Below, one piece after another: positions 5,755 to 26,494 of a stretch of 64,000 bases of DNA (position 1 is its first letter; each line of letters begins with the position of its first letter). The stretch spans positions 1-64,000 of the forward strand of contig JAFSHA010000026.1 in NCBI GenBank assembly GCA_017440565.1, read 5' to 3'. The position numbers and the translations under genes were made by a program. The DNA is from Eggerthellaceae bacterium (GTDB lineage: Bacteria; Actinomycetota; Coriobacteriia; Coriobacteriales; Eggerthellaceae). The notes under the pieces are model-generated. The model searched no databases. It worked only from the letters and a program-made list of their open reading frames with translations, and had not been told where the DNA came from.

Positions 5755-5842
5755 GGAGGAATGGCCGAGTGGTTGAAGGCGGCAGTCTTGAAAACTGTTG
5801 AGCCGCAAGGTTCCGTGGGTTCGAATCCTACTTCCTCCGCCA
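5755..5842 (+). tRNA. tRNA-Ser(TGA)
   Basis: An 88-nt type II tRNA. The acceptor pairs GGAGGAA with TTCCTCC, the anticodon is TGA in the sequence GTCTTGAAAAC, and G plus CCA are encoded. Its 3' end is duplicated at 6026-6045. Confidence 0.95.
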
Positions 5843-6096
5843 GTAATTCTAGGGTCCCGGCAACGGGGCCCTTTCTTGTTTGGACAAGCCCCTACGAAAC
5901 AGAAGTAGGATTCGAACCGATGAGGTGGAAAACCGTTAAGAAAACAGCCCAGTGGGCTGTTTTTAGGTTTTCGCCCGCAGGCGCCCTGCGCCAAGGGGTC
6001 GAGCGTTGCGCGCAGCGCGACGCGGGAATCCTACTTCCTCCGCCAGTAATTCCAGGGTCCCGGCAACGGGGCCCTTTCTTGTTTGCACAAGCCCCT
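5823..6096 (+). mobile_element. tRNA-Ser(TGA)-associated hairpin element with 71-bp direct repeats
   Basis: The tRNA 3' end plus terminator (5823-5893) is repeated at 6026-6096 with two mismatches. The 132 bp between the copies start with an inverted partial copy of the same tRNA (GAAGTAGGATTCGAACC, complementary to its T arm and acceptor). Then come a nested hairpin (GGAAAACC, AAACAGCCC / GGGCTGTTT, GGTTTTCG) and a GCGTTGCGCGCAGCGCGACGC hairpin. The core is nearly identical to the one at 26294-26434. No protein is encoded. Confidence 0.8.
5851..5882 (+). terminator. Terminator of tRNA-Ser(TGA), first copy
   Basis: Hairpin AGGGTCCC / GGGGCCCT followed by TTTCTTGTTT. A second copy lies at 6054-6085 within the downstream direct repeat. 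Confidence 0.85.
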
Positions 6097-6171
6097 GCAG
6101 GAGACATGGAATTAAACCAGCCTGAATCAATGGAAGATAGCGGCCACCTTGAAACAGGCTTATCCAAAGTG

Positions 6172-6462
6172 ATGGGGTTTGTCACGAAAATCGGCTTTTT
6201 CATCTGAAAAATATCCAAAACAGAGGGGTTTGTCACAGCTCCGCAGGATCAACGGAGTCGAGACAACGTGAAGCTTCGATGAAACAACTTTGTGACCTGC
6301 GGAAACGCTGGAAACACACAATACGCCCGACCTGTCGACCAACCTCGCGGTGCTCGAAATGCATCAAAACAGCATCGAGAGCCTCGTTCATCGTGACAAA
6401 CCCCCGCCTTTTGGATATTTCTTAGCGTAATCAGCCGAAAAACGTGACAAACCCCCTCGTTC
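6172..6462. repeat. 290-bp inverted-repeat element with two-part arms
   Basis: Left outer motif GGGGTTTGTCACG then AATCGGCT, and left inner motif AATATCCAAAA then GGGGTTTGTCAC, are both present inverted on the right (inner 6393-6423, outer 6433-6460). The central 150 bp hold no ORF that I can support. It resembles a MITE or a structured non-coding element. Confidence 0.75.
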
Positions 6463-6483
6463 TGACTGCACACGAGGGGGTTT
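6451..6483 (+). terminator. Possible terminator at the right end of the inverted-repeat element
   Basis: CCCCCTCG / CGAGGGGG with a 13-nt loop followed by TTT. It could also serve the minus-strand gene that ends at 6520. Confidence 0.5.
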
Positions 6484-6519
6484 GCGAATAACGTACCGAA
6501 ACGTTAGCCGAAGGCGACC

Positions 6520-12495: not shown

Positions 12496-12732
12496 AAAAA
12501 AGGCCAGCCGCTTGGGCTGACCTGGAAAGTCGTGGTGGTCGGAGGGGGACTTGGGCGTTTTCTCTTCGCGAAACCGCAGGCCTGCGCTCGGCTTCGCCGT
12601 GCTCGGCCCGAAACAGCCCCCCGGGCTGTTTCGCCGTCGCAGGGTTCAAGCCCCCACTACCTCTTCCGAAAAATAAAAAAGGCCAGCCGCTTGGGCTGAC
12701 CTAGAAAGTCGTGGTGGTCGGAGGGGGACTTG
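12496..12732 (-). mobile_element. tRNA-Phe-associated hairpin element with 58-bp direct repeats
   Basis: The tRNA-Phe 3' end plus terminator (12675-12732) recurs at 12496-12553 with one mismatch, a 179-bp period. On the minus strand the 121 bp between hold an inverted partial copy of the tRNA T arm (GGGGGCTTGAACCCT), a GAAACAGCCC / GGGCTGTTTC hairpin and a further GC-rich hairpin. The order of parts is the same as in the two tRNA-Ser elements, although the sequence differs. Confidence 0.75.
12672..12702 (-). terminator. Terminator of tRNA-Phe, first copy
   Basis: GGTCAGCCC / GGGCTGGCC-type stem (minus strand GGTCAGCCCAAGCGGCTGGCC) followed by TTTTTTATTTTT. A second copy lies at 12494-12523. 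Confidence 0.85.
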
Positions 12733-12787
12733 AACCCTCGGCACGCGGATTTTCAGTCCGCTGCTCTACCAACTGAGCTACCCGACC
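12712..12787 (-). tRNA. tRNA-Phe(GAA)
   Basis: A 76-nt cloverleaf with encoded CCA. The acceptor pairs GGTCGGG with TCCGACC (one G-T), the anticodon loop is CTGAAAA (GAA), and the T loop is TTCAAGT. Confidence 0.95.
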
Positions 12788-26160: not shown

Positions 26161-26253
26161 GGAGGGGTGGCAGAGTGGTTGAATGCGGCGGTCTCGAAAA
26201 CCGTTTTACCAGTGTCCCTGGTAACGAGGGTTCGAATCCCTCCTCCTCCGCCA
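26161..26253 (+). tRNA. tRNA-Ser(CGA)
   Basis: A 93-nt type II tRNA. The anticodon loop is CTCGAAA (CGA), the variable arm is long, and G plus CCA are encoded. Its 3' end is duplicated at 26435-26454. Confidence 0.95.
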
Positions 26254-26494
26254 GGAAAGTTAACGCTCCCAACCGGGAGCGTTTTTCGTTTTCGGGGAAA
26301 TCCCGAACAAAAAGGAGGGGTTCGAACCGATGAGGTGGAAAACCGTTAAGAAAACAGCCCAGTGGGCTGTTTTCAGGTTTTCGCCCGAAGGCGCTTGCGC
26401 CGAGGGATAGAGCGTTGCGCGCAGCGCGACGCGGGAATCCCTCCTCCTCCGCCAGGATAGTTAACGCTCCCAACCGGGAGCGTTTTTCGTTTTC
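26234..26494 (+). mobile_element. tRNA-Ser(CGA)-associated hairpin element with 60-bp direct repeats
   Basis: The tRNA 3' end plus terminator (26234-26293) recurs at 26435-26494 with one mismatch. The 141 bp between contain an inverted partial copy of the tRNA (GGAGGGGTTCGAACC), then the same core as the tRNA-Ser(TGA) element from GATGAGGTGGAAAACCG to GCGCAGCGCGACGCGGG, with only a few differences. No protein is encoded. Confidence 0.8.
26263..26292 (+). terminator. Terminator of tRNA-Ser(CGA), first copy
   Basis: ACGCTCCC / GGGAGCGT followed by TTTTCGTTTT; duplicated at 26464-26493. Confidence 0.85.

What the first reader, a model, noticed from the sequence alone, without database searches (positions are those of the whole stretch)
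5755..6096. tRNA-Ser(TGA): hairpin element between 71-bp direct repeats of the tRNA 3' end and terminator
The tRNA end, the CCA and the locus-specific terminator are repeated 203 bp downstream. The insert starts with a perfect 17-nt inverted copy of this tRNA (GAAGTAGGATTCGAACC), then carries a multi-hairpin core. Because the direct repeats include a terminator unique to this locus, they look like target duplication rather than an att core carried by the element. A 60-70 bp target duplication plus an inverted piece of the target is unlike ordinary transposons or integrases. It may reflect a template-switching or RNA-primed process, or a non-autonomous element class that targets tRNA 3' ends.
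Basis: partly seen in the sequence, partly recalled or inferred. Interest (0 to 1): 0.85.

Follow-up and report, generated by a model that had tools for sequence, protein, structure and literature searches.

The report
Self-spreading hairpin element at tRNA genes
Directly after three tRNA genes in this window lies a small folded non-coding element that carries an inverted copy of that tRNA's own T-arm and repeats the tRNA's end and terminator; the same element sits at many tRNA genes and at the tmRNA gene across the gut-bacterial class Coriobacteriia, and looks like an undescribed kind of copying genetic element.

Summary
Confirmed, and much larger than one locus. The window holds three copies: tRNA-Ser(UGA) (the finding), tRNA-Ser(CGA) at 26161 and tRNA-Phe at 12787 (- strand). 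A covariance model hits 74 of 137 Eggerthellaceae and 108 of 348 Coriobacteriia genomes; a 396-genome phylum sample gave hits only in that class.

Copies follow tRNA genes (19 anticodons in one census) or tmRNA, on the same strand. The order is: tRNA, terminator, inverted copy of that tRNA's T-arm, ~105-nt core, then a repeat starting at nucleotide 57 (mid T-loop) and usually including the terminator. Seven core helices covary strongly, and wobble pairs point to the tRNA-sense strand. Core similarity follows the genome, not the tRNA, and eight species of one genus lack the copy at a tRNA where a ninth has it. So it behaves as a spreading element whose ends match the target.

Reverse transcriptase, TnpB, Y1 and IS110 transposases are missing from element-rich genomes; integrase overlap and MITE rules are not met. 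How it moves is unproven. I favour T-arm pairing and template switching. Rivals: a host-functional RNA with gene conversion, or a recombinase-driven element. No Rfam match; no description found in the papers searched.

The parts
5755..5842 (+). intact tRNA-Ser(UGA), host of copy 1
   Evidence: ARAGORN; Rfam tRNA 59.3 bits
5823..5893 (+). first direct-repeat copy: tRNA nt 57-76 (CCA) + locus-specific terminator
   Evidence: terminator 5851-5872
5902..5918 (+). anti-T-arm: inverted copy of this tRNA's T-arm, spanning the C56|G57 junction
   Evidence: I3, 17/17 complementary
5919..6025 (+). conserved structured core (GATGAGG...CGCGG): GNRA-like hairpin, long covarying helix with terminator-like hairpin, two more hairpins
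   Evidence: CM R1 140.4 bits over 5900-6041; fold; covariation
6026..6096 (+). second direct-repeat copy: tRNA nt 57-76 + terminator; its first 12 nt pair with the anti-T-arm and close the structure
   Evidence: D1, I6; terminator 6054-6075
26161..26253 (+). tRNA-Ser(CGA), host of copy 2
26234..26312 (+). copy 2: first direct repeat with a different, locus-specific terminator
   Evidence: D1, 90% over 79 nt
26313..26328 (+). copy 2: anti-T-arm matching tRNA-Ser(CGA), one mismatch in 16
26329..26434 (+). copy 2: structured core, 93.5% identical to copy 1
   Evidence: CM R1 146.7 bits
26435..26513 (+). copy 2: second direct repeat
12712..12787 (-). tRNA-Phe(GAA), host of copy 3
12675..12731 (-). 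copy 3: first direct repeat (A57 to terminator T-run)
12643..12655 (-). copy 3: anti-T-arm of tRNA-Phe (one deletion)
12553..12642 (-). copy 3: divergent structured core, not reported as a hit by CM R1
12496..12552 (-). copy 3: second direct repeat with the same locus-specific terminator

Best explanation
It is one copy of a dispersed, protein-less, structured genetic element that lodges at the T-loop of tRNA and tmRNA genes. SHOWN: a ~105-nt core with conserved helices; an anti-T-arm matched to the resident tRNA on its left; on its right a repeat that starts at nt 57 of that tRNA and usually includes its terminator; near-identical cores at different tRNA genes of one genome; empty sites in relatives; tandem units; cores at points of rearrangement. 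INFERRED: the copying strand (an RNA, or single-stranded DNA of the same sense) pairs through its GGTTC/GAATCC-complementary end with the T-arm of another tRNA gene. A polymerase switches to the core, then re-enters the target at nt 57, where the core's own 3' half is homologous to every tRNA. The tRNA 3' half and terminator are thereby copied again, so the essential tRNA survives and the new copy carries ends that match its new host. Insertions that did not preserve the tRNA would be lost. Which polymerase or nuclease acts is unknown.
For: Found at many tRNAs: of 101 scored loci 95 have an intact tRNA immediately upstream on the same strand (19 anticodons), one a tmRNA; later loci add Val, Thr, Phe and tmRNA. 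Junction at C56|G57 in 84 of 95 (20 or 21 matching nt). Locus-specific terminator duplicated: 0.71 vs 0.40. Anti-T matches its own tRNA at 57-61 (0.966 vs 0.832 shuffled) and 62-65 (0.719 vs 0.520), beyond every one of 1000 shuffles. tRNAs or tmRNAs with A52 carry GAACT instead of GAACC (Asp, tmRNA, Leu-CAA), so the match also covers the left side of the junction, which the second copy lacks. Core identity: same genome/other tRNA 0.78, other genus/same tRNA 0.615; up to 0.99 between Arg and Met loci of one genome. Empty sites: tRNA-Ser UGA and CGA in the sister species; tRNA-Gly(UCC) filled in G109 and empty in eight congeners, with no anti-T in the empties. Covariation: 96.1% of cells paired vs 76.5% shuffled and at most 49% slid; 590 double changes vs 159; G-U cells 120 vs A-C 20 (53 vs 20 without one conserved G-U column), favouring the tRNA-sense strand. 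Tandem units, full or partial; hybrids joining two loci.
Against: No enzyme, transcript or intermediate has been seen. The inferred copying needs several switches, one of them (terminator to anti-T) without homology. In some loci the two terminators are unrelated (about 15 of 88). In two Gln/Ser loci of G113 the anti-T and a few flanking nucleotides look donor-derived rather than copied from the target. In probable Collinsella the copies after Ser(CGA) and tmRNA recur in most of the genomes looked at, as a host-functional RNA would. Genomes are one per species, many are MAGs, so no strain-level movement was seen.
Confidence: 0.5

Rival explanations
1. Host-functional cis RNA: the read-through product is a non-coding RNA that acts on its own tRNA (3' maturation, antisense to the T-arm, back-up terminator); intragenomic similarity comes from gene conversion.
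For: Strong covariation and sense-strand wobble pairs; strict position downstream of tRNA/tmRNA; copies at Ser(CGA) and tmRNA recur in most of the probable Collinsella genomes looked at, and keep the closing stem while the CCA of the repeat decays.
Against: Patchy: 0 to 17 copies per genome, absent from about half of Eggerthellaceae; empty sites without remnants in close relatives; many different tRNAs occupied; truncated and tandem copies. Where first and second 3' halves differ the anti-T usually follows the tRNA, not the repeat, so the closing stem is not strictly maintained.
Confidence: 0.22
2. [quoted passage not shown]
For: Same insertion point and 20-nt repeat as the ssrA islands (PMC3146451); tandem units separated by the repeat; some carrier tRNAs are 5'-truncated, as attR sites are.
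Against: A recombinase element carries one attachment site; here repeats and terminators differ per locus and match the host. A 7-bp tyrosine-integrase overlap (T54-T60) would have to be in both copies, but 54-56 are missing from the second. An inverted T-arm is not explained. No longer gene-carrying version was seen.
Confidence: 0.13
3. Retroelement: target-primed reverse transcription at a nick between C56 and G57, with the long repeat as a variable target-site duplication.
For: Fixed right junction with a variable other end of the duplication is the pattern of target-primed insertion; RNA structure conserved.
Against: RVT_1 is found in only 28 of 137 genomes and not in the complete genome G052 (11 copies), nor in G000, G136 or G113.
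Confidence: 0.07
4. Guide RNA of a TnpB/Cas12-like, IS110 bridge-RNA or Y1 system that finds the tRNA by its 20-nt 3' half next to a TTC motif.
For: Scaffold-then-20-nt layout with TTC present at the tRNA and absent at the repeat.
Against: TnpB (PF01385) in 3 of 137 genomes; Y1 missing from G052, G136, G064, G096; IS110 missing from G052, G136, G113, G109.
Confidence: 0.05
5. Simple old local duplication of the tRNA 3' end.
For: Repeat and tRNA are adjacent.
Against: Same core at dozens of tRNAs, class-wide, with empty sites.
Confidence: 0.01

Closest known systems
Dehalococcoides ssrA genomic islands (PMC3146451)
   Different: Kilobase islands with a CcrB-like serine recombinase and one target; here ~105 nt, no gene, many tRNAs, locus-specific terminator also repeated, anti-T-arm and conserved fold.
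tRNA-integrating prophages/ICEs (tyrosine integrases)
   Same: Use of the tRNA 3' end; a copied 3' half keeps the tRNA intact.
   Different: Identity block should contain the whole crossover overlap and belongs to the element; here it starts at nt 57 and comes from the host locus.
Bacterial MITEs (e.g. Correia/NEMIS, RUP, YPAL; PMC2229807)
   Same: Small, dispersed, protein-less, structured transcripts.
   Different: MITEs mostly have fixed terminal inverted repeats and short target duplications and often an IS parent; here the inverted arm is host-specific and the duplication is long and starts at a fixed point.
IS110 bridge RNA / TnpB omega-RNA / group I and II intron guides (general knowledge)
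   Same: An element RNA whose segment is complementary to the insertion site across the junction.
   Different: TnpB and IS110 proteins are missing from element-rich genomes; the core matches no Rfam family.

Membership tests
MITE | constant terminal inverted repeats shared by all copies | tested here: not met
   Left arm varies with the host tRNA; 12 nt further left unrelated between loci
MITE | short target-site duplication of fixed length | tested here: not met
   Duplications of tens of bp to over 100 bp, variable right end
Tyrosine-integrase element | identical crossover overlap in both repeat copies | tested here: not met
   T54-C56 absent from the second copy in most loci
Integrase/recombinase element | encodes or is mobilised by a site-specific recombinase | tested here: inconclusive
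   The ~105-nt core is too short for a recombinase gene; recombinases were not searched by profile, and a motif scan of 65% of G052 was too strict to be used
Retroelement (TPRT) | reverse transcriptase in the genome | tested here: not met
   RVT_1 absent from G052, G000, G136, G113
TnpB/omega-RNA system | TnpB nuclease present | tested here: not met
   3 of 137 genomes
IS110 bridge-RNA element | DEDD transposase present | tested here: not met
   Absent from G052, G136, G113, G109
IS200/IS605 (Y1) | Y1 transposase present | tested here: not met
   Absent from G052, G136, G064, G096
Any Rfam family, incl. RF01700 Collinsella-1 | covariance-model match | tested here: not met
   Only tRNA/tmRNA matches above gathering score in the window and in nine loci of another family; nothing above a gathering score in a permissive scan of the locus except tRNA

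The most novel reading that the evidence does not exclude
A categorically new kind of selfish element: a ~105-nt structured strand with no protein of its own that copies itself from tRNA gene to tRNA gene by pairing with the universal T-arm, each time rebuilding target-matched ends and duplicating the tRNA tail so that its essential host gene keeps working.
Probability: 0.4. Interest if true: 0.95.

Novelty: categorically new. Interest (0 to 1): 0.85.

Why it matters
A widespread element in gut bacteria (Eggerthellaceae and other Coriobacteriia families, one probably Collinsella) has not been annotated: no Rfam match and no description found. It combines a conserved fold with ends that match each insertion site, which no transposon, integrase or retroelement class known to me does. 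If it moves, it shows how a gene-free element can use the one sequence shared by all tRNAs as a landing pad without killing the host. If instead it is host-functional, it is a new RNA acting on tRNA and tmRNA genes. Either way it is testable in culturable relatives.

Tried and rejected
No match in PLSDB plasmids or INPHARED phages or by three patterns in IMG/VR, so no phage or plasmid carrier was found. Cas12/TnpB-like guide idea: attractive layout, dropped. Reverse-transcription stop at m1A58: dropped as an RT-dependent model. T-box resemblance of GAGGTGGAA: the GTGG part varies and sits in a covarying helix. Hammerhead-like CUGAUGA...GAAA: considered by eye only; the conserved loop is a GNRA-like hairpin. 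Element wholly donor-carried to matching tRNAs: only a weak link between T-arm heptamer and core identity (0.824 vs 0.771, p about 0.04 ignoring dependence). The two tRNA-Asp genes of G052 looked like a filled/empty pair, but the second has its element separated by an inserted transposase-bearing segment. Papers: seven searches gave no description of the element.

Full report
OBSERVATION. The repeat contains two near-identical terminators.

MORE COPIES. Searching the window's own genome found the core again after tRNA-Ser(CGA) at 26161 in the same window, after tRNA-Leu(UAA) on another contig, and at a contig end beside a tRNA-Gly 3' half. At Ser(CGA) the repeat contains a different terminator and the inverted piece matches that tRNA instead. 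A later check of all seven tRNAs in the window found a third, divergent copy after tRNA-Phe on the minus strand. The other four are empty. The sister species has both Ser tRNAs without the element.

FAMILY. A covariance model from 35 copies hits 74 of 137 Eggerthellaceae genomes, with up to 17 copies each, and 108 of 348 Coriobacteriia genomes. A phylum-wide sample of 396 gave 7 hits, all within the same order. These numbers are lower bounds, because the Phe-type core is not reported by the model. Of 101 loci examined, 95 have an intact tRNA directly upstream on the same strand, one is a tmRNA (called as such), one is cut by a contig end, three follow tRNAs with a missing 5' half, and one near a contig end shows no tRNA. 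In 1.6 Mb of the complete genome G052 all hits above 50 bits trace to a tRNA or tmRNA. The one that first looked like an orphan is an Asp copy separated from its tRNA by an inserted segment. There the anti-T-arm search is bimodal: 0 mismatches at the carriers and 3 or more at the other tRNAs, apart from one poorly predicted tRNA.

ANATOMY. From left to right: tRNA; terminator; anti-T-arm; core; tRNA nt 57-76; terminator. The repeat begins at nt 57 (20 or 21 matching nt) in 84 of 95 loci. The anti-T-arm matches its own tRNA at positions 57-65 far better than the tRNAs of other loci do. Positions 66-71 are not above the shuffles on average, so the 17-nt match of the finding is a long case. Positions 52-56 also match: the few hosts with A52 (Asp, tmRNA, Leu-CAA) carry GAACT where others carry GAACC. 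The 45 nt after the CCA are 0.71 identical between the two copies of a locus and 0.40 between loci. The core has seven helices with strong covariation (590 compensated cells vs 159 in shuffles). Wobble pairs are commoner on the tRNA-sense strand, also without one conserved G-U column (53 vs 20).

BEHAVIOUR. Core identity follows the genome, not the tRNA: 0.78 for different tRNAs of one genome, 0.615 for the same tRNA in another genus, up to 0.99 between Arg and Met loci. At tRNA-Gly(UCC) one species of a genus is filled and eight are empty without any anti-T-arm. In 26 of 88 loci the second repeat runs on into another anti-T-arm, from partial to nearly full further units; arrays of three units exist. 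Two loci join the left part of one tRNA locus to the right part of another (Gly/Lys; Ser-CGA/Ser-GCU), so cores probably serve as recombination sites. A lone anti-T-arm after tRNA-Lys in G052 is what recombination between repeats of a tandem copy would leave (inference).

WHAT IT IS NOT. Not a tyrosine-integrase remnant by the overlap criterion; not a MITE (no constant inverted repeats, long variable duplication). Reverse transcriptase, TnpB, Y1 and IS110 enzymes are lacking in at least two complete element-rich genomes, G052 and G136. A former or unrecognised enzyme is not excluded, and recombinases were not tested by profile. No Rfam family matches. The closest precedent in insertion position is the ssrA islands of Dehalococcoides, which use a serine recombinase and one target (PMC3146451).

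MECHANISM. The features that must be explained together are the fixed entry at nt 57, the host-matched anti-T-arm on both sides of that point, the duplicated host terminator with a variable end, and a conserved sense-strand fold. Template switching guided by the T-arm would account for the first three: the element's two borders, ...GGATTCGAACC and GAATCC..., are homologous to every tRNA, so copying can leave and re-enter at the T-arm. Re-entry at nt 57 duplicates the tail, and only insertions that leave the tRNA intact survive. The conserved fold then suggests that a structured single strand is the copied form. The order of switches and the enzymes are inference.

VERDICT. A real, class-wide, apparently undescribed kind of element. 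Existence and architecture are near certain; spread by copying with target-matched ends is likely; the mechanism is open.

Noticed in passing
6161-6484: A separate element: 66-nt inverted arms (76% complementary), each arm with two short direct copies of GGGGTTTGTCAC-type sequence; looks like a MITE. No PLSDB match.
   Followed up: partly
L123:140-520 and L178 (minus strand): Chimeric loci: left flank of one tRNA locus, right flank of another, joined through the core (Gly/Lys; Ser-CGA/Ser-GCU), suggesting element-mediated rearrangement.
   Followed up: partly
L120, L153, L173 upstream of the core: tRNAs with missing or replaced 5' halves, as left by integrative elements entering the same tRNA.
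   Followed up: no
G052 1135788-1137612 (L324): A transposase-bearing segment splits an Asp copy inside its terminator, separating tRNA from anti-T-arm and core by about 1.6 kb.
   Followed up: partly
G000 C93:3068, C67:15099, C65:71229: The hairpin GAAAACAGCCCAGTGGGCTGTTTTC of the core also occurs alone, flanked by GCAGTTCCGCAGC...CCAAAGCGAGGACTG: another dispersed repeat sharing the hairpin.
   Followed up: no
G052 1243100-1243503 (minus strand): tRNA-Lys(CUU) followed by terminator and a perfect anti-T-arm but no core: possible excision scar.
   Followed up: no
L181, L183, L186, L188, L246: Copies after Ser(CGA) and tmRNA in genus g52 (probably Collinsella) keep the closing stem of the repeat while the rest of the 3' half and the CCA have decayed.
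   Followed up: partly
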